This document shows, in pieces, positions 26,834 to 53,455 of a DNA stretch of 64,000 bases. Made by a program: the position numbers and the translations under genes. Within the stretch, counting starts at the first letter, position 1. Every line of letters begins with the position of its first letter. Under the pieces are notes generated by a model. It worked only from the letters and a program-made list of their open reading frames with translations, was not told the origin of the DNA and did no database searches. The stretch comes from Simmondsia chinensis (Eukaryota; Streptophyta; Magnoliopsida; Caryophyllales; Simmondsiaceae). Location of the stretch: contig JAGTTD010000014.1 in assembly GCA_018398585.1 (NCBI GenBank), positions 16,057,387 to 16,121,386 on the forward strand, read 5' to 3'.

Positions 26834-26885
26834 TCTGATACCTCGCTCTCCAATTACTATTAAAAACACCTTAAACTTGGCTCAA

Positions 26886-27427
26886 TTATATCAAAAAAGG
26901 ACAGATGGTAAATAATTCAAATAGTTGCACAGTACTGCTCAATTATTTCAAAAGTTGCACAGTGAAGACATGTGCAAAATTCAAGGTTCTTTTATCCGGT
27001 CACTGTTCGGAATTCAAATTTTCATTTCAAGTCTGGGGTCACGGATCTCAATTCAAATCCGATTGCTGCTTCGCCTATAAATGAAGGCTTCCCAGCTTCG
27101 TTCAAGAGAGAGCGAATTGGAGGGCGAATTGGAGGGCGAATTGGAGAGCGAATTCCAAGAATTCAAAAAATAGGAAAACACTAGAAAAATTTTCCTTGTA
27201 AATTTATTTTCCAGTGTTGTACTTCCGCTACTATCTCTGTAAGTTTCATATGTATTTCAATCTTATGTCTATATTTTCAATTTCTGTTTTGTACTAAAAC
27301 TATGTTCAAATCTTGCAATCAATAAATTCCCTCTTTCTCGTCTTCTTCTATCCTTGTTCATATTTTCCAATTGTGTTGTCCACCGTCGATCCTACCTCCT
27401 TTGTGTGGTATCAAAGCCAGTTTAAGG
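26886..27427 (+). promoter_or_regulatory. Viral promoter, poly(A) signal and primer site, copy B1
   Basis: The TATA box TATAAAT is at 27076-27082. AATAAA is at 27321-27326 and the primer site TGGTATCAAAGCCA at 27406-27419, with one change from the tRNA-Met consensus. The stretch 26845-26885 just left is an inverted piece of the post-primer leader, so the left edge is rearranged. The same promoter recurs at 52.0-52.55 kb (+), 46.2-46.68 kb (-) and 52.57-52.9 kb (-). Confidence 0.75.
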
Positions 27428-27499
27428 TATTTTCAATAGTAATTTCACGGAAATACTGTTAAGCACTTATTAGGAACATATTTGCTGTTAAAGCACTTA

Positions 27500-27700
27500 T
27501 TAGGAGCGTTGGTAAGCCGGTAGTGTAGCGTTGGTAAGCCCGGATAGCGTTGGTAAGCCCGTGTGTGAGGTGTTCCCGTTGGGTGTTCCCGTTACTGTGT
27601 CGCTGGTGTTCCCATTCTAAACAGTGTCAAATTGTAAAACTGTTCTCAACAGTGTTAAATAGTAAGACTGTTAGGTGACTGTTGAACCCAAATAACTAAG
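27500..27700 (+). repeat. Short tandem motifs in the viral leader, copy B1
   Basis: Between primer site and movement protein start there are three copies of GCGTTGGTAAGCC, three of GTGTTCCCGTT (last variant CCCATT) and two of CAGTGTNAAATAGTAA-like units. The same motifs occur in the A leader (inverted, 45.96-46.16 kb) and in part in the B2 leader (46.69-46.80 kb). Confidence 0.65.
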
Positions 27701-27709
27701 GCTGTAACC

Positions 27710-28460
27710 ATGTCAGGTTTCGAAATCGCTGGACCCTTTAGGAAAATATTTACAAAAAAACCCAATACAAGTTTACATGTTAATTCAAAAGAAGTTTCAA
27801 AACAAATTACAAACCCAAAAGATTTTGTTAAATGGAGCATTCCAAATGAGGATTTAGAATCAATTCATCAAATTGGTACTTTTGATTTCAAAATGGCTTT
27901 TTCATGTAAGACACATAAACAAGCAATGAATATTGATCAAGAAGCTCAAACAGTTCAACAGCTTTCTAATTTATCTATTCAAAAGTATATTGCAAAAGGT
28001 TTTCATTATATCCACCATGGATTAGTTCAAGTTGCTGTTGTTCCATTAGCAACATCAGGACATAACCAACCAGTTATGTTAAGTCTTAGAGATTCAACAT
28101 ATTTAAAATATGAAGAATCTTTATTGGCTATTGTTCAAACCAATTTACACAATGGACCAATTTATTTCACTTGTTATCCAAACTTTTCTGTCTCTCTTTG
28201 AGACCCAAAAATTTTAAACACTTTAGTTTTTTATATTAATTTACCAAATGTTGATATTCAAGAAAATAGAAAACACTTTGTTCTTATTTATAGAATTTAA
28301 TTCAAGCTTTTAGGAAGCCATCTTAACCCAAAACGTCTCAAACAATCGCCTCCTAGAGAAACTTTAGTTCTTGGGGTTCAAGCTGAACAAGCTTCAACCT
28401 TTACTCCAAAATGTCTCAAATGGAATGAGATAACCATTCCAGAAATTTGGAGGATTGGCA
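27710..28460 (+). pseudogene. Viral movement protein region, copy B1
   Basis: ATG 27710 opens a 163-codon frame that begins MSGFEIAGPFRKIFTK. It includes the HHGLVQVAVVPLA segment, which corresponds to the core of the caulimovirid movement protein that lets virus pass through plasmodesmata. A stop at about 28199 (an Arg codon turned to TGA) and another near 28298 break it; similarity continues to about 28460. The equivalent region in copy B2 is open through both sites. It is closely similar to the A and B2 copies. Inactive. Confidence 0.78.
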
Positions 28461-29700
28461 ACCCTCAACCTCCAAGAAATATTGCAAGAAGACAAGTTCA
28501 ACAAATTACTGAAGAACCTGATGGTAAAATTACCATTAAGTTCGAATCAGGAAAACAAACAATTATTTCAAACTCTTCTCAAACGGAATCTTCAAGACAA
28601 TCAACTTCATCCTTTCCATACAATAAGGAAGAAGATTTTCAAAAGACTTCTACTGCAAGGTTTAGAGGAATACGGTATAACTCCCCTCTTACCGAACCAA
28701 TATTTCAAAATGAATCATTTCAAATCCATGTTCTCCAACTGCTTCTCAAATGAGACCTCCTTCAATAAATGTTTTAACAAAAGATTTTACAATAAACAAA
28801 GAATTCTTAAGCAATGACTTTGAATCTGATCAAAATAAGGTTAAAAGACATTGGCACTTTGAAACTTGTACAAAGGAGTCAACAATCAAAATTAGAGAAA
28901 CTTATTACAAAGAATTAAATCAATTAAAATGTAATATTCCCTTCTTCAAATGGTTAGAATCATACACTTCAAGAAATCAAATACCAAATCCTTTTATAAA
29001 AAATTTCATAAATGTCAACACAAACCCTACAACAGAATGTTTAACAACAGATGGACAAATAATTCAAACTATTCATCCACCTACAAAAAATCTAATAATT
29101 AATGTTCAAAATCAGGAAGTGCTCGTTACTCCTTTCCGTGGGGGAAGAGAGGAAAAAGATGATTCACCACCTACAATCAAAGACATAAACAAAATTTATG
29201 AACAAAACAATTTTCAAGCCTTAAATCTCAAAATAATTTCGGAACAATTAAATTCAATTCATAACAACATAGTAAGTAACAAAGATAAGAAAAATTTGGA
29301 ACAATCTCCAATAGTCCAATCATTACCTCAACCTACATATACAAATTACACAATTCCACAACCAATACCTCAAAGCTACCCTATTCAACAAAGCTTTCCA
29401 ACTCCACAATCACAGACAAACCCATTCTTCTAAGGAATTCAACAACCTTCTTTCCAACCTTTCGATTTAACCCAAAAAGTTAAAAAAAATAAAAAATAAA
29501 ACTCAGAAAACCCCAAAATTCTGACGATGATATTATTGAAAGAATCACTCAAAAGCTCAAATTAACGGATAATCCAACAACTAGTAGCCCTACAATTCAA
29601 ACTATTTCAAAAGGAGAAAATGAAGTCTCAAGTAAAGAAACTTCATCATTTTCCCAACCAAAAGAAAAATTAAAATCACTATGTGTTCAAAACAATGATT
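28461..29700 (+). pseudogene. Viral polyprotein segment after the movement protein, copy B1
   Basis: The 28750-29433 frame is rich in Asn, Gln, Lys and Pro. It contains ETYYKELNQLKCNIPFFKWL and a disordered Gln/Pro tail (YPIQQSFPTPQSQ). It is shared almost unchanged with type A (minus, 45068-44160) and copy B2 (47880-48620). It links movement protein to capsid in type A. Here the capsid core that follows in type A is missing, and the text jumps at about 29650 to the knuckle segment. Stops near 29433 and a frameshift are present. Confidence 0.7.
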
Positions 29701-30140
29701 ATAATTTCAAACGACCTATGGGAAAAAACGAAAAGAAAAAACATTCAAAACAAAAGGCAAATAGAATCCCAATTTGCCACAGGTGCAGGAAACCTGGTCA
29801 TTTCATGAGAAATTGCAAAAGAAATCAACCAATGATTCAAGATGAAACCGACCGTTCATAGATAAATTAATAAATTTATCTAACTCAACCTCAAAAACTA
29901 TAAAAAATAGTTCAAAAAATTCTGAAGCTCAAAACGATATAGAAACTCAAAACTTATCTCACACGTTAACTCAAATACAAAATAAAACCTTAACCCTTGA
30001 TTCAACTACAAAAATAAATCACCATAAAATAATACAACTCAATAATCAAAAATTCAAAGATTCTGAATCCTGTTTAACCTTACCAAATTCAGAAATGACT
30101 CTCAAAACCTCTGGTACATACCCAGAAGTAATTCTCAATA
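29700..30140 (+). pseudogene. Zinc-knuckle segment specific to type B, copy B1
   Basis: A classical CX2CX4HX4C knuckle (CHRCRKPGHFMRNC) is encoded at 29775-29816, after a Lys-rich stretch. Ser/Asn/Lys-rich chain follows. The same segment in copy B2 is at 48771-49106. The knuckle of type A (near 39.7 kb) differs in sequence and in what follows it, so this is not a simple deletion of the type A text. It probably binds nucleic acid. Confidence 0.7.
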
Positions 30141-30407
30141 CATTTGATATTAATTATGACAGATTGCAAAAACTTGGTTTTTGTCCAAAAACAAATCGTT
30201 ATGTCTTGGTTTAAAGCAAATTTTCCAAAACTTCAAAGAATTTTATATTACAAAATTCTCTTTTCAAAACTCTATTACAAGTTTACAAAGACAAATGTAT
30301 TTTCAAAACTAAAAATAGCTATATCATTCCTTCAAAATTATTTCATGCAAAATCTTTCTTTCAGGGACCATTTTCGTACAGGTATTCTGATCTTTTATTT
30401 GCAGGAA

Positions 30408-31177
30408 ATGAAGAAGGTAGATAAAGGTAAAAGGAAGATTCAATCCACAGAGGACTATGCAAAGCCTCGCAAATCCCATTCCCATTCATCTCTAGGGGAA
30501 AATACACTCAAAATCAAAGAACCTTCTCTTCAAAAAACCCTAACACAAGTCCCAGATCAACCTCCTAAACAATCACTTCCAACTAGTCAATATATTACAA
30601 AATCTCATATGGAACACATCCTAGTTACAAGAGAAAACAAACCCCTGTCTCTTGACAGCATCAAAAACTTAGTGAAAAACGATTTCCCAAAGAATTTTCA
30701 TTGGTTTCTTGATGATATTCAGAAAACCCATGAATTTTATGAACTTATTTTGATTGATACAGGATCTGTTCAAATTAAATATCACCAGAATAATAATGAA
30801 CAAATCCAATTCTCAAGCTGCAAAATCAAAAATATTTTACATCTCAAAGACTTTGATCAATGTTTTTACAGACCAAAACGATTTTCAAAACCCTTTATTC
30901 CAGAAACTTATACTTATCAGGATTACAAAACAGCTTGGTTCAAAACTTTTCTTCTTAGACCATTTAATCAAACTTGGTTCTTCCAAATTATAAACAAATC
31001 TCAAGAGTTTCCAACATGGTTTTACGAATGGTGGAACACTTTTGAAAGCACAATTGATATTTACCCTGCTACAGCAAAAAACTTGTTTGGCATTTATTCA
31101 AATCATTCACAGGACAAGTCATTAGATTCAATCTTACATTTTCATACAATTTTCCAAATTCCTTGGATCTTTTGCTC
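30408..31177 (+). pseudogene. Viral ORF2, N-terminal part, copy B1
   Basis: ATG 30408 begins a frame in the same place as ORF2 of type A (37079, minus): Lys-rich start with KGKRKIQS, then a Ser/Pro linker. A conserved block follows with FPKNFHWFLDDIQKTHEFYE, an LIDTGS segment and TYQDYKTAWFKTFLLRPF. LTR element F breaks it at 31177. Frame is open as far as the insertion. An ORF2 of unknown role after RNase H is a florendovirus feature. In this type it follows the knuckle segment with no protease or RT between. Function unknown. Confidence 0.7.
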
Positions 31178-31667
31178 TGTTACAAACCGAGAATACGAGA
31201 CTCAAATTTTAAATGAGCAAATAAGGCGGGAGAGCTGTGGCGGGAAAATCTGTTAAATTCAGTGCTGCTAGTGCGTGCTGTTCTGTTCTGCTGCGTGACC
31301 CCTGTTGCTGGTGTAGTTGCTGTTATTTCTAGATATTTGGCGCCAATAATAAAAATCTTGAGCATTAGTTTGTTAGCTTTACATTCTAGATTGTTCCTAA
31401 GAGTGTCTAGGTTCCTTTATTACTGCTTACATTAGATTGTTATAAATAAGTGTGAATGTATGTTCATTTGGGCATCGAATGAATGAAATCTGAAATATCA
31501 TCTCAAATTGAGATAAAACTCTATTTTCTCATCCCCTTCCCTTCTTTCTCTTATCTAATTCTAAATTCTAACTTCTCATCTCAATTTCCTATTCTTTCTC
31601 ATCCCAAACTCTCAATTCTATCCAATTTATATTAGTTTACGTTCGAGGTTCAAGCCCGAGCATAACA
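31178..31667 (+). repeat. 5' LTR of element F
   Basis: TGTTACAAACCGAG to CGAGCATAACA, 490 bp, with a TATAAATAAG motif at about 31442 as likely TATA box. The 3' LTR is the same length. Confidence 0.9.
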
Positions 31668-32051
31668 AGTGGTATCAGAGCCTCGATCCGATCGAGTGCG
31701 AAATCATAAAAATTAAAAAATCAGATCCAGACTAAGCTGTTACAGTAGCTACGCAACTAGGTCTCAAGTTCTGGAGCTGCTATTCAAAGTGCAGATTTCA
31801 AGTTCAATTCAGACAAAGAAATCGCGGTTCGGCACAAGTTCGAGTTCAGTGAATTTAGATTTGTTGAGGACAATTTGATCAAGTTCAGATCAGAAATCAG
31901 CAAGATCAAGATTCAGCTCAGCAACATCCTGATTGTTCAAGTCGATATTCAGCAGCAATTACCAAATTCAAATCAGGATCTTCCCGATCAGGTACCAATC
32001 CGTTCAGATTCGGTTAAACACGAAATTTTGTGCTTGCGGTTGAGGTTGTGA

Positions 32052-34070
32052 ATGGAGTTAGGTGATGTGGTGATGTCTGGTGGAGTTCTTACCCGAGCTG
32101 CAGCTGCTCGTGCAGCGACAAATCAGTCATATGCTGAAGTTGTTTGTGGAAATGTTGAGAGTGAACCTCAAACAAGCATTGGTGATGGAGTAAGTGCTCA
32201 ATTGGCAGCCTTGATGAAGCAAATGACTGAAATGAATCAATCAATGCTGGAATCGAATCAGACCGTGCGAGAAATGGAGCAAAGGAATGATATTCGAATG
32301 CGTCTCATGTTGAAAGAGCAAGAGCAGGCCTTCATTGAAAGGTTTAACTTACAGTCTCAACAAGTAGATGATAAGATTGAAGCTCAAATCAAGCAGCACC
32401 AACAGCAATTGGAGAACATGATTACTGGAAGAATAGAACAGCAGGCTTGAATGTTTGATGAGAGGATAACCGAGATTCAAAAGCAGTTCAATAGGCCAAT
32501 TCTTGGAGGAAGTAATTTAGACAATGAAAGTTTTGTGTCTCAAGGTGTTGAAGGAATGATAACCGAACAAATGAATCAGCATGTTCAGAAGTTGGAAGAA
32601 AGAATCACCAACCGTTTGAACCAACAAACTTCGAATCTTGAGGAGAGGCTTAAAGAGTTGCATAACCAGGTTGAAAATCAGAATGTGGCGTCACGTTTTG
32701 CACCACTAATGCCATCAAGCTGATTAAATAGGACATATGTGGAGTTGGAACCTCAAAGTGGTAAAGCTGCAGCTGAAGTGCAGGTCCAAATCGAGCATAA
32801 CAGGCCACAAGAGCAGGCTTAAACCGAGCATTTCAGGCCACGAAATCAGGTCCCTGAAGTTGAGGTAGCAGCTGGTATGCGTGAGCAACGATTGGATCAA
32901 GAACATATTCGATCTTTAGGCACAAATTCAGATCCGAAGGAGCATCCTCCAGATTTTTCAGATCTGCATCCAGGACTGCAGTACCGAACAGAACAGAATG
33001 CAGGATACTTTGATCCATTTTATGAGCCAACACGCACGAGACCTTTTTTTTGGAATTCCGGACACCTTGTTCAACCGTCCACATCTGTTCTGCAGCAACA
33101 ATATGGACAAAATGCCTTTGAAATGGTTCATGACCGAAGCAATGAAGTTACCTATGGGAATAGACACAATAGCTTCCGACAACCTCGAGTTCAACTCGAA
33201 AATTTTGATGGGATGCAACCTCACTAGTGGATACGAAGATGCGAGCGATATTTCCATTTCTATTCCATCCCCAATGATCAAAAGGTGGAATTGGCCGCGG
33301 TTTATCTCCAAGGGGATCACGAAGTGTGGTTCTACAGCTTGCTAAAGAGCAATCCCGTTCTTACTTGGGACAAGTTCGTGTCTGAGATATGCGAGCACTA
33401 TGATGATAAAGAAGTGGGTGATGTCGTGGAAAGCTTCAACAAATTAACGCAAGTCACTACCGTGAAGGCCTATATGACGAAATTTGAAAATCTCCGAGCT
33501 AGTATGATTACAATTGCACCTCGAGCCCCCGAGTCCTTCTATGTCTCGAGCTTCATCAGTGGGTTAAAGCCGAAAATCAAGAACTTGGTGAAGGCTCTTG
33601 AACCTGCTTCCTTGTCACAAGCCTTTGCGAAGGAAAAATTGATTGAGGCCTCCGACTTAACGATTCTCGATCGGCCCAAGCATCGGGAGACATTTCTTGA
33701 TCGGCCCAAGCATCGAGAAAAGAACTTCCAACACCCTCACAAGGGGTTAGACCACAAGAAATGGGATAAGCATAAAGACCCCCAAAACTTTGAGAAGGTG
33801 TCCCGAAACCGCTGTTTTAAATGCCATCAACCTTGTGTACACGGTCATAGGTGCGATCCTAAACTTCTCATGATGGCAAGAGGAGTTGATATTGAAGGGC
33901 AATTCGAAAGTGAAGAAGATGACGCTGAAAATGAAGGATCCGATCAGGACCATGGCAGTGAGGATGAAGTGGATCCAATAGCTCGGAGGAAAGAATTGCA
34001 CGACCTCACTATGAAGTTGTACAAGTCCAAAAAACTTCAGTTTCGGAAGGGTAATGCTTCCAATGAGTGA
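32052..34070 (+). pseudogene. Gag of element F
   Basis: One reading phase of about 673 codons runs from ATG 32052 to the stop at 34068-34070. It is broken only by in-frame stops (at 32448-32450, 32721-32723, near 32820 and at 33225-33227). The N-terminus has the LTRAAAARAATNQSYAEV start, followed by a long Gln-rich coiled coil. The gag domain (33285 onward) contains MELAAVYLQGDHEVWFYSLL, VKAYMTKFENLRASM and FYVSSFISGLKPKIKNLV. The knuckle is CFKCHQPCVHGHRC, and the C-terminus is an acidic tail. Nothing of protease or pol follows. In trans it could have formed particles with partner proteins. Confidence 0.88.
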
Positions 34071-34091
34071 TTTTCGAGTATCGTTCTCTTT

Positions 34092-34111
34092 CATTCTTGA
34101 GGACAAGAATG
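34092..34111 (+). promoter_or_regulatory. Pre-polypurine-tract hairpin, element F
   Basis: CATTCTTG-AGGA-CAAGAATG, a perfect 8-bp stem with 4-base loop, 22 bases after the gag stop and directly before the polypurine tract. Confidence 0.65.
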
Positions 34112-34129
34112 TTTTCAAGGGAAAGGGAA

Positions 34130-34619
34130 TGTTATAAATCGAGACTATGAGACTCGAATTTTAAATGAGCAAATAAGGCGGGAGAGCTGTGGTGGGAAAA
34201 TCTTTTAAATTCAATGCTGCTGGTGCGTGTTGTTCTGTTCTGCTGCGTGACCCCTGCTGCTAGTGTAGTTGCTGTTATTTCCATATATTTGGCACCAACA
34301 ATAAATATCTTGAGCATTAGTTTGATAGCTTTACATTCTAGATTGTTCCTAAGAGTGTCCAGGTTCCTTGTTTTGTGCTTACATTAGATTGTTATAAATA
34401 AGTGTGAATGTATGTTCATTTGGGCATCCAATGAATGAAATCTGAAATATCATCTCAAATTGAGATAAAACTCTATTTTCTCATCCCCTTCCCTTCTTTC
34501 TCTCATCTAATTCTAAATTCTAACTTCTCATCTCAATTTCCTATTCTTTCTCATCCCAAACTCTCAATTCTATCCAATTTATATTAGTTTACGTTCGAGT
34601 TTCAAGCCCAAGAGTAACA
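34130..34619 (+). repeat. 3' LTR of element F
   Basis: TGTTATAAATCGAG to AAGAGTAACA, 490 bp, flanked on the right by TGCTG. Confidence 0.9.
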
Positions 34620-36221
34620 TGCTGGTCCTATGCTCATACTCAATATTTAAATCAACCCTATCCTCTTTCATTGGTTAGGGAATTCAAAGTAAAATGGTGG
34701 GATAATTTTGTTTTCAAAGAACACAACACCCCTAAGACTTTTCAAAAATACCTGAAACAATATTTTCAAAAATTCAATTTGGAATTTCAAAACATTTTAG
34801 AAATTTCAATATTACTTTCTAACTTGACAATTTTAGATTCAAAATCCAATTCCCCTTCAACTCCAAATGGTGATTCTCTTGCTCTTACTCTCAAAGAAAC
34901 ATCCTCTCAACAAACTCAAGTTCCTGATATTGAATCCCTCCAAATTCAATTACAACAAAAAAATAATGAGTGTATCAACCTCAGGCATCAAATCATGTTT
35001 TACAAAAACAAATAGATTACCAAACAAAGTCTCCAAATTGGACCAACTTTTCATCGACCTATGATTTTACAAAAACAAGAATTTTCTTCTTTCCTCAAAA
35101 ATTCCTCAGCTATTTGCCTGATGATGTTACTGCTCATATTGCTCTTGTCACTCAGCGCAGTAACAATACACTTCTGATAAAAATCCAACAATTCCTCCAA
35201 GACCTGTCTATCCATTGCGTTACAATACCAAGACTTACTTAATCCTGGACCACTCACTACAATTTCCCCTCCAATTGCAAGTAAACTCAAAAATGCTTAC
35301 ACTTGCCAAATAATAGGATGGACTGCCCATGTCATCTTACTTACTCAATTGTCCGTGTTTGCCTAGATTTAGAACTCTACAAGCCTATGTCAATCATCCA
35401 TGAAAACAAAGAAATTGACCTTACCGCTCAAAAACTTTTGGATTATGGATTTCTTTTCTAGATCATCATTGCCAAACCTGAACAAGCCACTGAATTTGGT
35501 AGTAAATTAGCCGATGTAATTCAAAAACAATTCGATTACAAAGTCACTTCCATTGACACTATTGTTCAATCTAACCTCCTGAATTCAATGGTATTTACAC
35601 AAATCCTGGTCAACATCGAATGCTTCTCTACGGTTCATATGTTCGTCACACGTTATGCCCTTCAGACGATCCATGGCCATGTACCAACAATCATATTGGA
35701 AAACAACTAAGACACCGGAGGGCAAAACAAATGGCTTTTGATCTCCATCCTCAAGCATTTTCAACAAATAGTAATAGTGGGATTATAAATGCTTTCCTAG
35801 TCATGGAAGATTTTATTCAAAAAATATACTTATTCACTAGAAATTTTGATGTCCCTTTCCTCAAATTACAATTTATGAATCCCTACTCCATGATTATGAG
35901 AAACTCAAAAATCAAGAAGATGAAAGAATTCAGGAAGAAGAAAGGCTCAATCTCAACACTTTGCTTTATCCTGATTGATATTTGTCCAAAAGTAAACCCA
36001 TTCATATTTTCAGTCATGATTCTCAAGGCATCCTTAAAACCCCTTCAAAATCTCATCCTAAAAAGGCCTCACCCTCAAATTCTTCAAAGTCCAAATCCAC
36101 AACAAAAATCTCAAAGGAAGTTCTAGCTCAACTCCTTCAACAAATTCAAAATTCCTCCTCCTCTGATGACGATGATGATGATATCAGTTCCAGTCAGAGT
36201 GATCTATTCAATTTATTTTAA
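34620..36221 (+). pseudogene. Viral ORF2, C-terminal part, copy B1
   Basis: It continues viral ORF2 after element F. A VREFKVKWWDNF block opens it, a coiled stretch follows (SLQIQLQQKNNECINLRHQ), and then decayed middle parts at 35020-35900. The C-terminal tail is Ser/Asp-rich (SSSDDDDDDISSSQSD...FNLF, ending 36219-36221). The last acidic tail is shared with copy B2 (51968) and with the minus fragment at 52944. Several frameshifts. The acidic C-terminus is the best conserved part after the N-terminal block. Confidence 0.68.
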
Positions 36222-36362
36222 TAATTCAAGACAGTTCTACCATTTTTTTGAATTCTTGGAATTCGCTCTCCAATTCGCCCTCCAATTCGCTCTCAATTTT
36301 TGGACGTTTAGAGCAATTTCTTGGCCTTTATGGATAAAGGTCATTGGATGATAAGGAGCCAT
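36222..36362. other. Mosaic junction between copy B1 and type A
   Basis: Plus-strand B1 sequence ends at about 36243. It is followed by an inverted piece of the leader (GAATTCTTGGAATTCGC motif, 36250-36292). Next comes an inverted 60-base piece matching ORF2 of copy B2 at about 51121-51180, and then type A ORF2 on the minus strand. Three joins therefore lie within 120 bases. Confidence 0.6.
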
Positions 36363-37079: not shown

Positions 37080-37095
37080 TCTCCTGGGAAAGTAA

Positions 37096-38525: not shown

Positions 38526-38531
38526 ATTTGA

Positions 38532-42898: not shown

Positions 42899-42909
42899 TT
42901 TTCAAGGGG

Positions 42910-43506: not shown

Positions 43507-44426
43507 TGTTTCTACAGCGTCTTCCACCACTTCTTCAACGTAGGGTGAATTAACGTCATTTGGATCAACTCTTCTTCTTTCTATATGTATATGATCAAGT
43601 ATTGATTGTTTTTCATGGGGTTGGAGAATTCTTGACCACCATGATTGAAGTTGTCCTAAGAATCCAGAAACAAGCAACCTGGCAGATATATGATTTGTAC
43701 GTGCAGGATTAGCGGCCTCGTACGCTATTGATGCCATTGCCATTTGTTGTAGAGTATTTTTGATCTCATATTCAGATTTTCCATCTATATTCCATTCATG
43801 GATATCATTTCCATTGAATGATACAAAGGGAAATTGATTTCTTTCTTCGAATTGCATATCCGGGGGGGTTGGTCTTGGATAATAATTCTTTGTGGGTTTG
43901 TTTCTCCAATTATTTCTTATTCTGTTTATTGAAAATTCAGGGTTTTCAATTGTATTGGTGTTGAATTGTTCTTCGGTCTTTTGAATTTCTATTTCACTTA
44001 ACGATATTGATGAAGTTTCTTCACTTGAGACTTCATTTTCTCCTTTTGAAATAGTTTGAATTGTAGGGCTACTAGTTGTTGGATTATCTGATAATTTGAG
44101 CTTTTGAGTGATTCTTTCAGTAATATCATCGTTAGAATTTTGTGGTTTTCTGAGTTTTATTTGTTCTTTATCTTTTTGAGTTAAATTGAAAGGTTGGAAA
44201 GAAGGTTGTTGAATTCCTTGAAAGAATGGGTTTGTCTGTGATTGTGGAGTTGGAAAGCTTTGTTAAATAGGGTAACTTTGAGGTATTGGTTGTGGAATTA
44301 TGTAATTTGTATATGTAGGTTGAGGTAATGATTGGACTATTGGAGATTGTTCCAATTTTTGCTTATCTTTGTTACTCACTATGTTATTATGAATTGAATT
44401 CAATTATTCCGAAATTGTTTTGAGAT
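43507..44426 (-). pseudogene. Viral capsid core, N-terminal half, type A
   Basis: The 43857-43489 frame starts MQFEERNQFPFVSFNGNDIHEWNIDG in the part before the insertion and includes NHISARLLVSGFLGQLQSWW, a capsid-core pattern of caulimovirids. The region 44426-43860 continues from the shared polyprotein segment through a Ser/Glu-rich link with stops. The core has no counterpart in B1 or B2. Confidence 0.72.
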
Positions 44427-45356
44427 TTAAGGCTTGAAAATTGTTTTGGTCATAAATTTGTTTATGTCTTTGATTGTAGGTGGAGAATCGTCTTTTTCCT
44501 CTCTTCCCCCACGGAAAGGAGTAGCGACCACTTCCTGATTTTGAACATTATTGATTAGATTTTTTGTAGGTGGATGAATAGTTTGAATTACTTGTCCATT
44601 TGTTGTTAACCATTTGGTAGTAGGGTTTGTGTTGACATTTATGAAATTTTTTATAAAAAGATTTGGTATTTGATTTCTTGATGTGTATGATTCTAACCAT
44701 TTGAAGAAGGGAATATTACATTTTAATTGATTTAATTCTTTGTAATAAGTTTCTCTAATTTTGATTGTCGACTCCTTTGTACAAGTTTGAAAGTGCCAAT
44801 GTCTTTTAACCTTATTTTGATCAGATTCAAAGTCATTGCTTAAAATTTCTTTATTTATTGTAAAATCTTTTGTTAAAACGTTTATTGAAGGAGGTCTCAT
44901 TTGAGAAGCAGTTGGAGAACTTGGATTTGAAAATGATTCATTTTGAAATACTGGTTCGGCTAGAGGGGAGTTAAATCGTATTCCTCTAAACCTTGCAGTA
45001 GAAGTCTTTTGAAAATCTTCTTCCTTATTGTATGGAAAGGATGAAGTTGATTGTCTTGAAGATTCCATTTGAGAAGAGTATGAAATAATTGTTGTTTTCC
45101 TAATTCGAACTTAATGGTAATTTTACCATCAGGTTCTTCAGTAATTTGTTGAACTTGTCTTCTTGCAATATTTCTTGGAGGTTGAGGGTTGTCAATCCTC
45201 CAAATTTCTGGAATGGTTATCTCATTCCATTTGAGACATTTTGGAGTAAAGGTTGAAGCTTGTTCAGCTTGAACCTCAAGAACTAAAGTTTCTACAGGAG
45301 GAGATTGTTTGAGACATTTTGGGTTAAGATGGCTTCCTAAAAGCCTGAAATAAATT
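44427..45356 (-). pseudogene. Viral polyprotein segment after the movement protein, type A
   Basis: A 213-codon frame (45068-44427) is nearly the same as B1 28750-29433 and B2 47880-48620. It includes ETYYKELNQLKCNIPFFKWL. It connects the movement protein with the capsid in this copy. A stop separates it from the movement protein region and a frameshift lies near 44440. Confidence 0.72.
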
Positions 45357-45941
45357 CTATAAATAAGAACAAAGTTTTTTATTTTCTAGAATATCAACAT
45401 TTGGTAAATTAATATCTAAAACTAAAGTGTTTAAAAGTGTTGGGTCTCGAAGAGAGACTAAAAAGTTTGGATAACAATTGAAATAAATTGGTTCATTGTG
45501 TAAATTGGTTTGACCAATAGCCAATAAAGATTCTTCATATTTTAAATATGTTGAATCTCTATGACTTAACATAACCGGTTGGTTATATCCTGATCTTGCT
45601 AATGGAACAACAGCAACTTGAACTAATCCATGGTGGATATAATGAAAATCTTTTTCAATATACTTTTGAACAGATAAATTTGAAAGTAGTGGAAATGTTT
45701 GAGCTTCTTGATCAATATTCATTGCTTATTCATTTGTTTTATAAGAAAAAGCCATTTTGAAATCAAAAGTACCAATTTGATAAATTGATTCTAAATCCTT
45801 ATTTGGAATGCTCCAGTTAACAAAATCTTTTGGGTGTGTAATTTCTTTTGAAACATCTTTTGAATTAACAACATGTAAACTTGTACTGGGTTGTTTTGTA
45901 AATATTTTCCTAAAGGGTCCAGCGATTCTGAAACCTGACAT
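45357..45941 (-). pseudogene. Viral movement protein, type A
   Basis: ATG 45941 opens the frame (MSGFRIAGPFRKIFTK...). One stop at about 45726 separates a second part (45722-45357) in the same phase, which has HHGLVQVAVVPLARSG and LKYEESLLAIGQTNL. The type is a caulimovirid movement protein of the 30K superfamily. It is nearly identical to the copies at 27.7 and 46.8 kb. Confidence 0.8.
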
Positions 45942-46204
45942 GGTTACAGCCTTAGTTATTTGGGTTCAACAGTCACCTAATAGTCTTACTATTTAACACT
46001 GTTGAGAACAATTTTACTATTTGGCACTGTTGAGAATGGGAAAACCAGCGACACAGTAACGGGAATGCCCAACGAGAATAGCTCACACACGGGCCTACCA
46101 ACGCTACACTACCAGCTTACCAATGCTCTTAATAAGTGCTTTAACAGCAAATTTGTTCCTAATAGTGCTTAACAGTATTTTCGTGAAATTACTGTTGAAA
46201 ACAC

Positions 46205-46680
46205 CTTAAACTTGGCTCTGATACCACAAAGGGCAATGGGATCGACGGTGGACAACACAATAGAAAAATATGAACAAGGACAGAAGAAGACGAGAAAGAG
46301 GGAATTTATTGATTGCAAGATTTGAACATAGTTTTAGTACAAACTATACGTATGAAACTTACAGAGATAGTAGCGGAAGTACAACACTGGAAAATAAATT
46401 TACAAGGAAAATTTTTTCAGTGTTTTCCTATTTTTTGAATTCTTGGAATTCGCTCTGCCTTGAACGAAGCTGGGAAGTCTCCATTTATGGGTGAAGCAGC
46501 AACCGCATTTGAATTGAGATCCGCGATCGTGGACTTGAAATGAAAATTTTAATTCCGAACAGCGGCCGGATAAAAGAACCTTGAATTCTGCACGTCTTCA
46601 CTGTGCAACTTTTGAAATAATTGAGCAGTATTGTGCAACTATTTGAATTATTTGCCATTCGTCCTTTTTTGATATAATTG
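46205..46680 (-). promoter_or_regulatory. Viral promoter, poly(A) signal and primer site, type A
   Basis: On the minus strand: TATA-like CATAAAT at about 46482-46488, AATAAA at 46305-46310 and primer site TGGTATCAGAGCC at 46214-46226 (perfect). Transcription would run left into the type A movement protein. The order matches the other promoters in the locus. Confidence 0.75.
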
Positions 46681-46837
46681 AGCTTACTATGTGTGAGGTG
46701 TTCCCGTTGGGTGTTCCCGTTACTGTGTCACTGGTGTTTCCGTTCTCAATAGTGTCAAATAGTAAAACTGTTCTCAACAGTGTTAAATAGTAAGACTGTT
46801 AGGTGACTGTTGAACCCAAATAACTAAGGCTGTAACC

Positions 46838-47710
46838 GTGTCAGGTTTCAGAATTGCTGGACCCTTTAGGAAAATATTTACAAAACAACCAAGTACAAGT
46901 TTACGTGTTGTTAATTCAAAAGAAGTTTCAAAAAAAATTACAAACCCAAAAGATTTTGTTAACTGGAGCATTCTAAATGAGGATTTAGAATCAATTTATC
47001 AAATTGGTACTTTTGATTTCAAAATAGCTTTTTCATGTAAAACACATGACCAAGCAATGAATATTGATCAAGAAGCTCAAACAGTTCAACTACTTTCAAA
47101 TTTATTCATTCAAAAATATATTGCAAAAGGTTTTCATTATATCCACTATGGATTAGTTCAAGTTGCTGTTGTTCCATTAGCACGGTCAGGACATAACAAA
47201 CCAGTTATGTTAAGTCTTAGAGATTCAACATATTTAAAATATGAAGAATCTTTATTGGCTATTGTTCAAACCAATTTACACAACGGACTAATTTATTTCA
47301 ATTGTTATCCAAACTTTTCAGTCTCTCTTCGAGACCCAACAATTTTAAAGACTTTAGTTTTAGATATTAATTTACCAAATGTTGATATTCAAGAAAATAG
47401 AAAAAACTTTGTTCTTATTTATAGAATTTATTTCAGGCTTTTAGGAAGCCATCTTAACCCAAACTGTCTCAAACAATCTCCTCGTGGAGAAACTTTAGTC
47501 CTTGAGGTTCAAGCTGAACAAGCTTCAACCTTTACTCCAAAATGTCTCAAATGGAATGAGATAACCATTCCAGAAATTTGGAGGATTGACAACCCTCAAC
47601 CTCCAAGAAATATTGCAAGAAGACAGTTCAACAAATTACTGAAGAACTTGATGGTAAAATTACCATTAAGTTCGAATCAGGAAAACAAACAATTATTCAA
47701 ACTCTTCTAA
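46838..47710 (+). pseudogene. Viral movement protein, copy B2
   Basis: This is the longest surviving movement protein frame (291 codons). Its start codon has changed from ATG to GTG at 46838, compared with ATG at 27710 and 45941. It then matches the other two closely to about 47620, where a one-base loss changes the phase. It has no promoter of its own: the sequence 5' of it begins in the leader after the primer site and is joined head to head to the type A promoter. Confidence 0.8.
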
Positions 47711-47879
47711 AATGGAATCTTCAAGATAATCAACTTCATCCTTTCCATACAATAAGGAAGAAGATTTTCGAAACACTTCTACTGCAAGGTTTAGAGGAAT
47801 ACGGTTTAACTCCCCTCTAGCGGAACCAATATTTCAAAATGAATCATTTTCAAATCCAAGTTCTCCAACTGCTTCTCAA

Positions 47880-48765
47880 ATGAGACCTCCTTTAAGAAAT
47901 GTTTTAACAAAAGATTTTACAATAAACAAAGAATTTTTAAGCAATGACTTTGAATCTGATCAAAATAAGGTTAAAAGACATTGGTACGTTCAAACTTTTA
48001 CAAAGGAGTCAACAATCAAAATTAGAAAAACTTATTACAAAGAATTAAATCAATTAAAATGTAATATTTCTTTCTTCAAATGGTTAGAATCATACACATC
48101 AAGAAATCAAATACCAAATCCTTTTATAAAAAATTTCATAAATGTCAACACAAATCCTACAACCAAATGGTTAACAACAGATGGACAAGTAATTCAAACT
48201 ATTCATCCTCCTATAAAAAATCTAATAATTAATGTTCAAAATCAGGAAGTGGTCGCTACTCCTTTCAGTGGGGGAGGAGAGGAAAAAGACGATTCACCAC
48301 CTACAATCAAAGACATAAACAAAATTTATGAACAAAATAATTTTCAAGCCTTAAATCTCAAAACAATTTCGGAACGATTAAATTCAATTCATAACAACAT
48401 AGTCAGTAACAAAGATAAGCAAAAATTGGAAAAATCTCCAATAGTCCAATCATTATCTCAACCTACATATACAAATTACACAATTCCACAACCAATACCT
48501 CAAAGCTACCCTATTCAACAAAGCTTTCCAACTCCACAGTCACAGACAAACCCATTCTTTCAAGGAATTCAACAACCTTCTTTCCAACCTTTCAATTTAA
48601 CTCAAAAAGATAAAGAATAAATAAAACTAAGAAAACCACAAAATTCTGACGATGATATCATTGAAAGAATCACTCAAAAGCTCAAATTATCGGATAATCC
48701 AACAACGAGTAGCCCTATAATTCAAACTATTTCAAAAGGAGAAAATGAAGTCTCAAGTGAAGAAG
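47880..48765 (+). pseudogene. Viral polyprotein segment after the movement protein, copy B2
   Basis: A 246-codon frame matching B1 and type A, ending in the Gln/Pro-rich tail (YPIQQSFPTPQSQ) and QPFNLTQKDKE. A stop at 48618-48620 separates it from the knuckle segment. As in B1, the capsid core is absent after it. Confidence 0.72.
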
Positions 48766-48770
48766 CTTCA

Positions 48771-49106
48771 TTGATATGTCAACCAAAAGAAAAATTAAAA
48801 ACACTATGTGTTCAAAATAATGATTATAATTTCAAAATACCTATGGGAAAAAACAAAAAGAGAAAGCATTCAAAACAAAAGGCAAATAGAATCCCAATTT
48901 GCCACAGGTGCAGGAAACCTGGTCATTTCATGAGAAATTGCAAAAGAAATCAACCATTGAATCAAGATGAAAACCGACCGTTTCTAGATAAATTAATAAA
49001 TTTGTCTAACTCAACCTCAGAAACTATAAAAAATAGTTCAAAAAATTCTGAAATTCAAAAGGATATAGAAACTCAAAACTTATCTCACACTTTAACTCAA
49101 ATATAA
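48771..49106 (+). pseudogene. Zinc-knuckle segment specific to type B, copy B2
   Basis: A 111-codon frame with a Lys-rich stretch, the CHRCRKPGHFMRNC knuckle (about 48902-48943) and a Ser/Asn-rich tail, ending 49104-49106. It is homologous to B1 29700-29990 and has the same joint with the preceding segment, so the two B copies share one architecture. Confidence 0.72.
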
Positions 49107-49220
49107 AATAACACCTTAATCCTTGATTCAACTACAAAAATAAATCACCATAAAATAATACAACTCAATAATAAAAAATTCAAAGAATTTAAATCTAGTT
49201 TAACCTTACCAAATTCAGAA

Positions 49221-51968
49221 ATGACTCTCAAAACCTCTGGTACATACCCAGAAGTAATTCTCAATACATTTGATATTAATTATGACAAATTGCAAAATCT
49301 TGGTTTTTTTCCCAAACAAATCATTATGTCTTGGTTTAAAGCAAATTTTCCAAAACTTCAAGGAATTTTATATTACAAAATTCTCTTTTCAAAACTCTAT
49401 TACAAATTTACAAAGCCAAATGCAATCTCAAAACTAAAAACAGCTTTATCATCCTTTCAAAATTATTTCATGCAAAATCTTTCTTTCAGGGACCATTTTC
49501 GTACAAGTATTCTGATCTTTTATTTGCAGAAAATGAAGAAGGCAGACAAAGGTAAAAGGAAGATTCAATCCGTTGAAAACTATGCAATGACCTTCAAACC
49601 CTATCCTCAATCCTCTTCAATTAATATTCCTGCTCAAAACCTTCTTGAAATTCAAAATACAAATATTCCCTCAAATCCCTGCTCTGCAGCCGCAACAGGA
49701 TTTTCAAATCTTCTCCCATTCAAACCTCTTGACCCTTCTCAATCCTTCAATCAAAAAGTCCAAAGCACATTATTAAAACAAGCAAGCCAATACATCTCAA
49801 AACCGCAGAAAGAGCACCTGCCGGTAACGAGAAAGAAAAACCCCCTATCTAATGATGATATCAAAAATTTTGCCAAATCTATTTTCCCAAAAGATTTTCA
49901 TTGGTTTCTTGATGATATTCATAAAACTCGTGAATTTTATGAACTCATTCTGATTGATACTAGATCTGTTCAGATTAAGCATCACAAGGGTGATAACGAA
50001 CAAATCCAATCCTCAAATTGCAAAATTAAAAAAATTTTACGTTTGAAAGATTTCGGTCAAAATCATTACAGGCCAAAAAGATTTTCAAAACCTTACTCTC
50101 AAAATAGTTTTACCTATCTTGATTACAAAACAGCTTGGTTCAAAACTTTTCTTTATTAACCTCTTGATCATACTTGGGTTTTCCAAATTACAAAAAAATT
50201 TCAAACATTTCCAATATGGTTTTATGAATGGTGGCATTTCTTTGGAAGCACCATTGATATCTACCCTGCTATGATAAAAATTTTTTTTTGATATTTACTC
50301 AAATTGCTCTCAAAATGAACCACTGGACTCTATTTTACACTTCATTCAATTTTTCAAGTTCCATGGACCTTATGCTGGTCCTATGCACATAGTCAATTTT
50401 TAAGTCAACCCTATCCTCTTTCATTGGTTAGGGAATTCAAAATCAAATGGTGGGATAATTTTGTTTTTAGAGAAAATTATACCCCCAAAACCTTTTTAAA
50501 TTACCTAGAACAACATTTCCAAATGCCTGATTTAGAATCTCAAAATATTTCAAATATTTCAACATTATTTTCTAATCTAGCAACATCAGGTTCAAATGAA
50601 GCCTCTGTGATCTCAAGTCATTATTCTTCTACTACCAAGGACATACCCCTTCTACACAACCAAACCCCTGATATCATTTCCCTTCAAACTGAATTGCAAA
50701 ACCAAATTACGGAATGTGTCAACCTTAGACAACAAATACTTGTTCTACAAAAACAAATTGATTACCAAACAAAACCTCCAAATTGGGCCAAGTTTGCATC
50801 AACCAATGAATTCACAAAACTAAGGATCTTTTTCTTCCCTCAAAAATTCCTCAATAATTGACCACATGATGTTGCTACTCATATTGCTTTTATTACCCAA
50901 TATAATAATAATAGACTCCTAATTAAAATACAACAACTTCTCCAAGATTTATCCAACAATGAAATTGATATTCCTGGCCTAACTTACCAATGGTATACCT
51001 TTTACCATTTCCAAACAGAATGTAGACAAACTCAAAATTGCCTCAATCCTCCTGACTTTAGGGGAGATTGCCCTTGTCATCTCATTTATTCAATTGTACG
51101 TGTTTGCATTAACTATGAAATTTATCATCCAATGACCCTTATCCATAAAGGCTAAGAAATTGCTCTAACCGCCCAAAACTTTTTAGATTATGGATTCCTA
51201 TGCCAATTGAATTTTACAAAACCTGATCAAGTCGATCAGTTTGGCAGAAAACTCAAATACATAGTTCACAAAAATTTTCAAGAAGGAGCCATCTCTGTTG
51301 ATGTTACAATTCAATCAAAAGCTGTAGAATTCTACGATATCTTGACAATCCCTTCTCAACATAGAATGCTTGTTTACGGGTCACCTATTAGGCATTCTCT
51401 TCTCCCTTCTGATATCCCATAGCCATGCCCAAATAATTCCATAGCTGTACAAATTCAACATTGGAGAGCAAGGGAAGCTGCAGATAGTACCATTAGTCCT
51501 GATATTGCAATAGGAAAAAATCACAATGATTTTGGTAATTTCCTTGTCTCTGAAGATTTTACTTAAAAAATCATTTCTTACAACAAAAATTCTGATGTTC
51601 CCTTTCTTGTTGAAACTAAGCAAAACTTTTTATTTAAGAAGTATGAAAAACTCAAAGAATAGGATCCCATAAATTGGTATATTAATCCCTTCTAATCCCT
51701 TTTGACTACAGTTTCTTTGTCAAAATTTTTCAAAAACAAAAATAAACCCATTCAAATTTTCAGTCATGATCCTCAAGGCATCTTTAAAACCCCTTCAAAA
51801 TCTCATTCTAAAAATGTCTCACCCTCAAATTCTTCAAATTCCAAATCCACAACAAAAATCTCAAAAGAAGTTCTAGCTCAACTCCTTCAGCAAGTTCAGA
51901 ATTCCTCCTCTGATGACAATGATGATGATATCAGTTCAAGTGAGAGTGATCCATTCAATTTATTTTGA
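49221..51968 (+). pseudogene. Viral ORF2 with upstream linker, copy B2
   Basis: The 49221-50159 frame runs through a linker (FDINYDKLQNLGFFPK) into ORF2 (ATG 49533, MKKADKGKRKIQS). The conserved block FPKDFHWFLDDIHKTREFYE and YLDYKTAWFKTFL follow. After a stop at about 50157 the chain continues at 50424-50861 (VREFKIKWWDNF, coiled segment SLQTELQNQITECVNLRQQ), 51207-51422 and 51702-51968 with the acidic SSSDDNDDDISSSESD tail. This gives the full layout of ORF2, which is broken by element F in B1 and deleted in type A. Unknown function; the central coiled coil and acidic tail suggest self-association and binding to a basic partner (inference). Confidence 0.7.
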
Positions 51969-52009
51969 TAATTCAAGACAGTTCTACCATTTCAATACAA
52001 GACAAGCAC

Positions 52010-52547
52010 TACAAGACAAAAGTTGCATAGTAAGCTCAATTATATCAAAAAAGGACGGATGGCAAATAATTCAAATAGTTGCACAGTACTGCTCAATTAT
52101 TTCAAAAGTTGCACAGTGAAGACATGTGCAGAATTCAAGGTTCTTTTATCCGGTCACTGTTTGGAATTCAAATTTTCATTTCAAGTCTGAGGTCGCGGAT
52201 CTCAATTCAAATTCGGTTGCTACTTCGCCTATAAATGGAGACTTCCCAGCTTCGTTTAAGGCAAAGCGAATTGGAGAGCGAATTCCAAGAATTCAAAAAA
52301 TAGGAAAACACTAGAAAAATTTTCCTTGTAAATTTATTTTCCAGTATTGTACTTCCGCTACTATCTCTGTAAGTTTCATATGTATTTCAATCTTATGACT
52401 GTATTTTCAATTTCTGTTTTGTATTAAAACTATGTTCAAATCTTGCAATCAATAAATTCCCTCTTTCTCGTGTTCTTCTGTCCTTGTTCATATTTTCCAA
52501 TTGTGTTGTCCACCATCGATCCTGCCCCCTTTGTGGTATCAGAGCCA
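52010..52547 (+). promoter_or_regulatory. Viral promoter, poly(A) signal and primer site at the 3' end of copy B2
   Basis: TATAAAT is at 52230-52236, AATAAA at 52451-52456 and the primer site TGGTATCAGAGCCA at 52534-52547 (perfect). In a circular genome this region lies between ORF2 and the movement protein. Here it follows ORF2, so the integrated copy is linearised just after the primer site. Confidence 0.78.
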
Positions 52548-52569
52548 AGTTTAAGATGTTTTTAACAAT

Positions 52570-52930
52570 ATTTTCGTGAAATTACAAGGAAAATTTTTCT
52601 AGTGTTTTCCTATTTTTTGAATTCTTGGAATTCACTCTCCAATTCGCTCTGCCTTGAATGAAGCTGAAAAGTCTCCATTTATAGGCGAAGCAGCAACCGA
52701 ATTTGAATTTAGATCCGCGACCGTGGACTTGAAACGAAAATTTGAATTTCGAACAGTGACCGGATAAAGAACCTTGAATTCTGCACATGTCTTCACTGTG
52801 CAACTTTTGAAATAATTGAGCAGTACTGTGCAACTATTTGAATTATTTGCCATCCGTCCTTTTTTAATATAATTGAGCTTGCTATGCAACTTTTGTCTTG
52901 TAGTGCTTGTCTTGTATTGAAATGGTAGAA
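52570..52930 (-). promoter_or_regulatory. Inverted viral promoter, convergent with that of B2
   Basis: TATAAAT on the minus strand at 52677-52683. The leader part (52585-52680) is the inverted copy of 52250-52330. The promoter drives leftward, toward the B2 promoter 450 bases away. Confidence 0.72.
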
Positions 52931-52943
52931 CTGTCTTGAATTA

Positions 52944-53455
52944 TCAAAATAAATTGAATGGATCACTCTGACTGGAACTGATATCATCATCATTGTCATC
53001 AGAGGAGGAATTTTGAACTTGTTGAAGGAGTTGAGCCAGAACTTCTTTTGAGATTTTTGTTGTGGATTTGGAATTTGAAGAATTTGAAGGTGAGGCCTTT
53101 TTAGGATGAGATTTTGAAGGAGTTTTAAGGATGCCTTGAGAATCATGACTGAAAATTTGAATGGGTTTACTTTTGAACAAATATCAATCAGGATAAAGCA
53201 AAGTGTTGAGATTGAGCCTTTCTTCATCCTGAATTCTTTCATCTTCTTGATTTTTGAGTTTCTCATAATCATGGAGTAGGGATTTATAAATTGTAAATTT
53301 GAGGAAAGGGACATCAAAATTTCTAGTGAATGAGTATATTTTTTGAATAAAATCGTCCGTGACCAGGAAAGCATTTATAATCCCACTATTACTATTTGTT
53401 GAAAATGCTTCAGGATGGAGATCAAAACTATGGTTTTAGAACTTTTCCATTCCGA
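52944..53455 (-). pseudogene. Viral ORF2, C-terminal fragment
   Basis: The minus frame 53180-52944 encodes the Ser/Lys linker and the acidic SSSDDNDDDISSSQSD tail of ORF2. Upstream to about 53440 is the preceding segment, in shifted phases. It is close to B1 35750-36221 and ends at the 30-bp flanking repeat. Confidence 0.68.

What the first reader, a model, noticed from the sequence alone, without database searches (positions are those of the whole stretch)
26834..53455. Two structural types of one endogenous pararetrovirus at a single locus: one with RT, one repeatedly without
Type A (minus) has capsid core, protease, RT and RNase H. Type B occurs twice (plus, B1 and B2). In both B copies the same internal joint omits capsid core, protease and RT and carries its own zinc-knuckle segment and linker before ORF2. 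The promoter, leader, primer site and movement protein region are nearly identical between types, while the ORF2 N-terminal blocks are clearly diverged. A random deletion would not give the same joint twice, a different knuckle and a diverged ORF2. Florendoviruses are known to include species with a proposed bipartite genome, and this looks like a bipartite pair with shared 5' control region. The alternative is one old defective variant that was amplified together with its helper.
Basis: partly seen in the sequence, partly recalled or inferred. Interest (0 to 1): 0.87.

Follow-up and report, generated by a model that had tools for sequence, protein, structure and literature searches.

The report
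Four-part plant virus fossil, one polymerase
This plant chromosome holds a block of old virus DNA in which one polymerase-bearing genome sits beside two polymerase-less genomes with nearly the same front half but different last genes, and a third polymerase-less kind lies elsewhere in the same plant genome, so the virus likely spread as at least four cooperating pieces rather than the two described before.

Summary
The array 26834-53455 lies between exact 30-bp direct repeats. It holds one RT-bearing copy (A, minus) and two RT-less copies (B1, B2, plus) with the same joint. B1 and B2 are not one type: their ORF2 regions are only 70-76% alike. Genome-wide, the joint query matches all 40 places scored (of 396 candidates; the window's own two included). 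Behind it stand three ORF2 types: beta 22, gamma 11, delta 5, plus one alpha recombinant and one cut off. All 15 RT-bearing copies read (of 40 listed) carry a fourth type, alpha. ORF2 trees give four clades; trees of the movement-protein half mix the types. ORF2 between types is under purifying selection (dN/dS 0.16-0.29; neutral control 0.86-0.91). The RT-less types carry an extra region X of roughly 400 aa, also constrained (0.20-0.25), absent from alpha. Best reading: a florendovirus-like pararetrovirus divided into at least four components, one supplying polymerase and capsid. Two-component florendoviruses and concerted evolution of control regions are published (PMC4241990, PMC5491270); new here are three parallel RT-less types, homogenised coding halves and X. 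Satellite status is not excluded.

The parts
26804..26833 (.). left copy of exact 30-bp direct repeat, read as target-site duplication of the whole array
   Evidence: only two occurrences in the window
53456..53485 (.). right copy of the same 30-bp repeat
26880..36245 (+). B1: RT-less copy, ORF2 type gamma (interrupted by nested LTR element 31178-34619)
26880..27709 (+). B1 promoter, leader and tRNA-Met type primer site (about 27406)
   Evidence: primer-site identity recalled
27710..28201 (+). B1 movement protein frame, broken
   Evidence: PF01107 1.2e-08
28750..29433 (+). B1 MID region with DUF7588
   Evidence: PF24496 7.5e-19
29648..30407 (+). B1 joint: knuckle (29766-29819) and linker
30408..31177 (+). 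B1 ORF2 gamma, first part
31178..34619 (+). nested LTR retrotransposon in B1 ORF2 (LTR pair 94.1%), later insertion
34620..35987 (+). B1 ORF2 gamma, second part (most of region X)
35988..36245 (+). B1 shared tail of ORF2
36246..46690 (-). A: RT-bearing copy, ORF2 type alpha (interrupted by nested LTR element 40341-43506; ORF2 cut short at about 36370)
45100..45942 (-). A movement protein region
   Evidence: (homology to B copies)
44427..45068 (-). A DUF7588 region
   Evidence: PF24496 3.7e-19
43510..43975 (-). A capsid, first part; absent from B
   Evidence: PF24925 2.8e-21 in frame 43492-43857
40341..43506 (.). nested LTR retrotransposon in A capsid region (LTR pair 95.3%)
39900..40337 (-). 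A capsid, second part; absent from B
   Evidence: PF22909 1.6e-12
39698..39751 (-). A zinc knuckle
   Evidence: sequence; relation to B knuckle
38532..39242 (-). A aspartic protease frame; absent from B
   Evidence: PF00077 1.1e-07
37096..38016 (-). A RT C-part and RNase H frame, ends ORF1
   Evidence: PF00078, PF17919, PF17917
36370..37071 (-). A ORF2 alpha, N domain (other frame than ORF1)
46690..52578 (+). B2: RT-less copy, ORF2 type beta
46838..47710 (+). B2 movement protein frame
   Evidence: PF01107 3.1e-17
47880..48620 (+). B2 MID region with DUF7588
   Evidence: PF24496 8.2e-21
48804..49532 (+). B2 joint: knuckle (48891-48944), linker, possible RNase H remnant; same frame as ORF2
49533..51730 (+). 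B2 ORF2 beta (N domain, then region X roughly 50480-51730), broken by stops
51731..51995 (+). shared acidic tail of ORF2
52026..52560 (+). second copy of promoter/leader/primer-site region after B2
52579..53455 (-). inverted tail/promoter fragment closing the array

Best explanation
The window carries a likely single insertion of chained genomes of one florendovirus-like pararetrovirus that was probably divided into at least four components: one RT-bearing (A, ORF2 type alpha) and three RT-less (beta, gamma, delta), with a nearly common promoter, leader, primer site and movement-protein half but different ORF2 proteins. Shown: domain content, one joint, four discrete ORF2 types, intermixed 5' halves, selection on ORF2 and X, co-location, and the flanking 30-bp repeat. 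Inferred: A supplied polymerase and capsid in trans. Inferred: the common primer site, leader and packaging region let A's machinery copy and pack the RT-less components. Inferred: template switching during reverse transcription kept the 5' halves the same. Inferred: each ORF2 type, with region X on the RT-less ones, had its own function that the virus population kept by selection.
For: One joint at all 40 places scored, typed as 22 beta, 11 gamma, 5 delta, 1 alpha recombinant, 1 cut off. RT side: 15 of 15 read are alpha, out of 40 RT places listed. The 40 RT places scored (of 496 candidates) are 92-100% alike, one RT type. ORF2 tree: 3 changes, the minimum, 0 of 200 shuffles as low (19 rows, 27 rows). 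5' trees: MID 16 changes against shuffled mean 14.2, joint 10 against 8.8, MP 9 against 10.7 (26 of 200 as low). Type does not clearly predict 5' identity (MID +0.0014, 271/1000; joint +0.0014, 357/1000; MP +0.0057, 51/1000); locus does (MP 1/1000, joint 2/999, MID 52/1000; 5, 5 and 13 same-locus pairs). Window A, B1 and B2 are nearest kin in MID (99/96*). Beta-gamma profile: 88-98% up to the joint end, 71-87% or unmatched across ORF2, 91-98% again in tail and promoter. Within types, ORF2 and MID identity go together (rho 0.61, 20 pairs), as do ORF2 and joint (0.50, 25 pairs). dN/dS between types 0.16-0.29, X 0.20-0.25, neutral control 0.86-0.91. 28 of 40 RT hits lie in clusters with RT-less copies; one cluster on C11 holds all four types. 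30-bp flanking repeat.
Against: A encodes the full set, so it needs no B: complementarity, the main published argument for a divided genome, is missing apart from X. Function of ORF2 and X is unknown; no relative of X was found and its fold model failed (pLDDT 34). No particle or infection is seen. An older gamma lineage (L057, L058, L059, L063, L064) forms its own clade in the joint tree, and those with MP and MID do so there too, so mixing is not complete at all depths; with it, MP and joint trees show slight clustering by type (26 and 21 of 200 shuffles as low; gamma alone 10 and 28 of 500), and the first 5' strain is no longer one clade. Already the MP tree leans slightly that way (26 of 200). 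ORF2-MP identity within types is uncorrelated (rho -0.05, 16 pairs). The joint itself is only weakly constrained (dN/dS 0.63). Lists hold the 40 best matches only, so counts are lower bounds biased to copies near the queries. Alpha and delta genome counts did not complete.
Confidence: 0.58

Rival explanations
1. The RT-less types are helper-dependent satellites (non-autonomous pararetroviruses) riding on an autonomous A; they keep A's 5' half because only that lets A's proteins copy and move them, and their ORF2/X serves themselves.
For: A has MP, capsid, protease, RT, RNase H and ORF2 and needs no partner; a commensal pair with homogenised control regions is proposed in PMC5491270.
Against: Three RT-less types each under purifying selection with a large extra region X is more than a bare parasite needs; in the MID tree both 5' strains hold all four types.
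Confidence: 0.27
2. Several separate florendoviruses infected the plant together and exchanged their 5' halves; the ORF2 types mark different virus species.
For: Type distances are large (66-79% nt identity); recombinants exist (L011, L012, L002).
Against: One RT type among the 40 best RT hits, and only alpha behind the 15 read: beta, gamma and delta have no RT of their own in what was seen. The 456 unscored RT candidates were not looked at.
Confidence: 0.1
3. Gene conversion between integrated copies in the plant chromosome, not the virus, made the 5' halves alike.
For: Copies of different type at one locus are more alike in the 5' half than copies at different loci.
Against: Mixing holds across chromosomes. 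Median end branches of the 5' halves (0.029-0.039) are about half the divergence of the nested LTR pairs (K 0.047-0.062), so most differences arose after insertion and the 5' halves were already alike when inserted.
Confidence: 0.05

Closest known systems
Bipartite florendoviruses of grape, rice and sorghum (components A and B; Geering 2014, PMC4241990, passages seen)
   Same: RT-less component with MP, ORF2 fused to the end of ORF1, near-identical control region and MP, compound insertions; RT-less unit of about 6 kb, within the published 5.5-6.9 kb
   Different: There: two components, in grape B keeps capsid and protease and A lacks capsid. Here: A is complete, B lacks capsid core and protease, there are three RT-less ORF2 types, and B has extra region X. 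Whether the published B components hold X was not tested
Non-autonomous pararetroviruses of grasses (eRTBVL2, ePVCVL, ePVCVL2; Chen 2017, PMC5491270, abstract, passages and section 8 seen)
   Same: RT-less genomes kept in partnership by recombination that homogenises the intergenic region
   Different: There: pairs, and homogenisation argued for the noncoding region (with MP also 95.3% alike in one pair). Here: one RT-bearing and three RT-less types, and mixing tested in about 2.7 kb of coding sequence (MP, MID, joint)
Grape VvinDV component B (CAULIFINDER paper, PMC9719215, passages seen)
   Same: Only MP and zinc finger motif detected in it
   Different: No further ORF2 types mentioned in the passages seen; sequence not compared here
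Multi-component viruses with a common region, such as nanoviruses and begomoviruses (recalled)
   Same: Components share a control region and differ in the gene carried
   Different: Single-stranded DNA viruses without reverse transcription

Membership tests
Florendovirus (Caulimoviridae) | ORF1 order MP, capsid with zinc finger, protease, RT, RNase H | tested here: met
   A copy: (frames broken; MP by homology to the B copies)
Florendovirus (Caulimoviridae) | second ORF of 45-58 kDa specific to the group, usually in another frame | tested here: met
   ORF2 alpha in another frame than RNase H; the N domain, read in gamma copy L005, is 39% identical to a 414-aa protein P0001. That P0001 is a florendovirus ORF2 is my reading; it carries no name. 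Mass not measured
Florendovirus (Caulimoviridae) | tRNA-Met primer site | tested here: met
   TGGTATCAGAGCC in the leader; its match to tRNA-Met is recalled
Florendovirus (Caulimoviridae) | RT groups with florendoviruses in a tree | not tested
   no labelled reference held; best RT hits are 75% (unnamed), 66% Cajanus cajan and Solanum verrucosum, 65% Vitis vinifera
bipartite florendovirus component B | no RT; N-terminal part of RNase H missing | tested here: inconclusive
   RT absent; RNase H remnant only hinted at (hhalign E 0.089; shuffles)
bipartite florendovirus component B | ORF2 homologue fused to the end of the polyprotein | tested here: met
   natural 369-aa open frame L004:2574-3683 runs from before the knuckle into ORF2 beta
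bipartite florendovirus component B | keeps capsid and protease (as in grape) | tested here: not met
   B has only the knuckle; MID joins it directly
bipartite florendovirus component A | capsid partly or wholly deleted | tested here: not met
   capsid domains in window A; capsid pieces map in L001 and L029
non-autonomous pararetrovirus (Chen 2017) | RT-less, shares control region with a partner by recombination | tested here: met
   no formal breakpoint test was run, and the trees are of coding parts, not of the control region

The most novel reading that the evidence does not exclude
A pararetrovirus divided into four or more genome components: one polymerase-and-capsid component and a set of RT-less components built as a constant 5' half plus an exchangeable ORF2-X cassette. 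The cassettes diversified under selection while the constant half was kept the same by recombination. So far as the searches here show, it would be the first reverse-transcribing virus with more than two components.
Probability: 0.48. Interest if true: 0.86.

Novelty: new variant of a known kind. Interest (0 to 1): 0.7.

Why it matters
Divided genomes are common in plant RNA viruses but nearly unknown among reverse-transcribing viruses; only two-component cases are in the papers I saw. A fossil set with one RT-bearing and three RT-less parts would let one test how such a virus splits its genome, whether the parts are satellites or true segments, and what ORF2, the unknown florendovirus protein, does. 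The constant-half and variable-cassette layout also offers a record of recombination during reverse transcription.

Tried and rejected
Random deletion derivative: rejected, since the joint is shared at all 40 places scored and X looks like a gain, not a loss. X as a copy of another viral domain: hhalign of X against MP, MID, both capsid parts, protease, RT-RNase H, an LTR-element gag and P0001 gave nothing convincing; the best was the protease end, P 0.005 over 45 columns among 8 tests. X in known families: none over cut-off in Pfam; PDB best 0.64; none among 532 candidates of the protein database (which considers only proteins of 0.55-1.75 times the query length, so whole fused polyproteins were not candidates); none in viral contigs or plasmids. 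RT in viral contigs: none. Structure of X: AF2 model failed, not searched further. RNase H remnant in the B linker: only suggestive. Host identity: not established; RT hits gave no close named plant. The PF00078 scan of the genome was not sorted or used. Genome counts of alpha and delta: asked repeatedly, never answered.

Rows dropped: searches used 13 RT-less ORF2 regions (6 beta, 5 gamma, 2 delta) and 6 alpha; left out there were L002, L006, L007, L011, L012, L016, L018, L019, L020 (chimeric, cut or, for L018, simply not taken) and alpha pieces L026 and L028. One search took the first 16 rows of each 5' set. The 1-kb pieces L037-L049 were typed but put in no tree. L031 and L035 held no viral match, and L021 belongs to the neighbouring gamma copy L008. 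Of the 40 joint hits one (in L007) is cut off and untyped; L019 was typed as beta on 120 bases; L002 and L012 are chimeric and counted as beta.
Full report
What is in the window. The array reported at 26834-53455 is real. Self-comparison gives B1 on the plus strand (26880-31177 and 34620-36245, split by an LTR retrotransposon), A on the minus strand (46690 to 36246, split by another at 40341-43506), B2 on the plus strand (46690-52578) and an inverted tail fragment to about 53455. Exact 30-bp direct repeats at 26804-26833 and 53456-53485 bound the array and occur nowhere else in the window. I read them as a target-site duplication: B1, A and B2 likely went in together as one chained molecule. 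The nested LTR pairs have diverged by K 0.062 and 0.047, so at rates of 1.3e-8 to 4e-9 (recalled) the array is at least about 2 to 8 million years old.

Domains. A carries MP homology, DUF7588, capsid domains (PF24925, PF22909), knuckle, protease, RT and RNase H, then ORF2 in another frame. In both B copies the MID region passes at the same place (A 44008/43976, B1 29648, B2 48804) straight to a knuckle segment, a linker and ORF2. In copy L004 a natural 369-aa open frame runs from before the knuckle into ORF2, so ORF2 is fused to ORF1 in the RT-less type. The B knuckle is a diverged relative of A's. A remnant of RNase H in the linker is hinted at but not shown (hhalign E 0.089; 4, 40, 44 and 80 of 500 shuffles as high in four copies).

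Genome-wide. The unnamed host genome is 831 Mb in 35 contigs. The 841-base joint query found 396 candidates; the 40 scored all match over at least 810 bases at 85-100%, the window's own two included. On C35 several joints follow each other at about 6.03 kb, which I read as the length of one circular RT-less unit. All 40 were typed where possible: ORF2 behind the joint is beta in 22, gamma in 11 (5 of them by the coordinates), delta in 5, alpha with A's RNase H end in 1 (L011, a recombinant), and cut off in 1. Tandem units on C35 may not be independent insertions. The RT query found 496 candidates; the 40 scored are 92-100% alike, so one RT type among them. Of these 40 I read the RNase H to ORF2 side of 15: all 15 are alpha, two with internal deletions. 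A gamma query gave 40 scored of 445, at 83-100%, 39 of them starting at base 22 or earlier and so with the joint side present. A beta query gave 40 scored of 471, 36 starting at base 40 or earlier. Alpha and delta genome counts did not complete.

Discrete ORF2, mixed 5' halves. ORF2 is 86-96% alike within a type and 66-79% between types (up to 81% for the chimeric L002, and L012, part beta part alpha, is not counted). The ORF2 tree needs the minimum of 3 changes (0 of 200 shuffles as low). All four types have 100/100 support, with L060, an outlying beta, added, beta falls to 87/92 while the others stay at 100/99 or better. Trees of MP (22 rows), MID (28) and joint (22) mix the types: 9, 16 and 10 changes against shuffled means 10.7, 14.2 and 8.8, with 26, 194 and 200 of 200 shuffles as low. 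In the MID tree two well supported 5' strains (100/98* and 97/98*) each hold alpha, beta, gamma and delta rows (one alpha row of the second is the recombinant L011). Window A, B1 and B2 are nearest kin in MID (99/96*). Identity tests agree: at different loci, same type adds 0.0014 (MID), 0.0057 (MP) and 0.0014 (joint) with 271, 51 and 357 of 1000 permutations as high; same locus adds 0.0104, 0.0224 and 0.0342 with 52/1000, 1/1000 and 2/999, on 13, 5 and 5 same-locus pairs. With eight more diverged copies (L057-L064) an older gamma lineage forms its own clade, the first strain is no longer one clade, and slight clustering by type appears in MP and joint (26 and 21 of 200 shuffles as low) but not in MID (79 of 200). 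Beta against gamma, identity along the unit is 88-98% up to the joint end, then 71-87% or no match across ORF2, then 91-98% in the tail and promoter; delta already falls to 79-84% in the last 300 bases of the joint. Within types, ORF2 identity follows MID (rho 0.61, 20 pairs) and joint (0.50, 25 pairs) but not MP (-0.05, 16 pairs).

Selection and region X. On frame-consistent stretches, without gaps or stops, dN/dS between types is 0.16-0.29 and within types 0.41-0.50. The same kind of procedure on random non-viral codons mutated neutrally gives 0.86-0.91. Synonymous distances between types are large (dS 1-2), so the ratios are rough. MP and MID give 0.39, the joint 0.63. Beta, gamma and delta ORF2 regions are about 2.1-2.2 kb, alpha about 0.96 kb before the tail. 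The extra part, X, is roughly 400 aa by that difference, with a coil-like start and conserved cysteines (DCPC). X alone has dN/dS 0.20-0.25 between types. The ORF2-like proteins P0001 (414 aa) and P0002 (Glycine soja) match the N domain only, so X looks like a gain in the RT-less components. No relative of X was found and its model failed.

Co-location. Linking hits less than 40 kb apart, 28 of 40 RT hits lie in clusters with RT-less copies; the rough chance expectation is 0.8%. One 134-kb cluster on C11 holds all four types; the window and seven other clusters hold A with beta and with gamma or delta. The lists hold only the 40 best matches per query and five deltas.

Mechanism. The plainest account is a divided virus. 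A would have supplied capsid, protease and polymerase; the RT-less components have nearly the same promoter, leader, primer site and MP half, and would have brought different ORF2-X proteins. Recombination during reverse transcription would have kept the common half alike. Beyond the sequence itself this is inferred. A complete A means the RT-less parts may instead be satellites; selection on three ORF2-X types makes me prefer components that served the virus, at 0.58 against 0.27.

Literature. Geering 2014 (PMC4241990; passages) proposes two-component florendoviruses in grape, rice and sorghum. Chen 2017 (PMC5491270; abstract, passages, section 8) proposes RT-less partner viruses with concerted evolution of control regions. 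PMC10377300 (passages) adds beet, and PMC9719215 (passages) notes that only MP and zinc finger were detected in VvinDV component B. The listings showed no title or abstract start that reports more than two components; this covers only the held open library, and supplements were not read.

Noticed in passing
L011:2918-5149: Recombinant copy: B joint followed by A's RNase H end and alpha ORF2, with shared tail; shows exchange between component kinds
   Followed up: partly
L012:517-2865 and L002:2587-2757: L012 has beta N part then alpha; L002 starts ORF2 with a diverged 84-bp piece (77% to beta, as gamma copies show) and goes on as beta
   Followed up: partly
L060:2748-3556 (C4:12.86 Mb): Outlying beta ORF2 (83%), splitting from the base of the beta clade; possibly a fifth type or subtype
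   Followed up: no
L057, L058, L059, L063, L064: Older gamma lineage with its own joint clade; L057 and L059 lie beside older A pieces (88-90%)
   Followed up: partly
window 55679-58624 (-): LINE-like reverse transcriptase and endonuclease frames (named from recalled motifs)
   Followed up: no
window 24001-24195 and 24271-24464: 195-bp direct repeat, 95% alike, left of the array
   Followed up: no
G000:C24:17743-18222 and 26252-26731: RT matches in stop-free frames of 5333 and 4222 aa on one contig, unusually long
   Followed up: no
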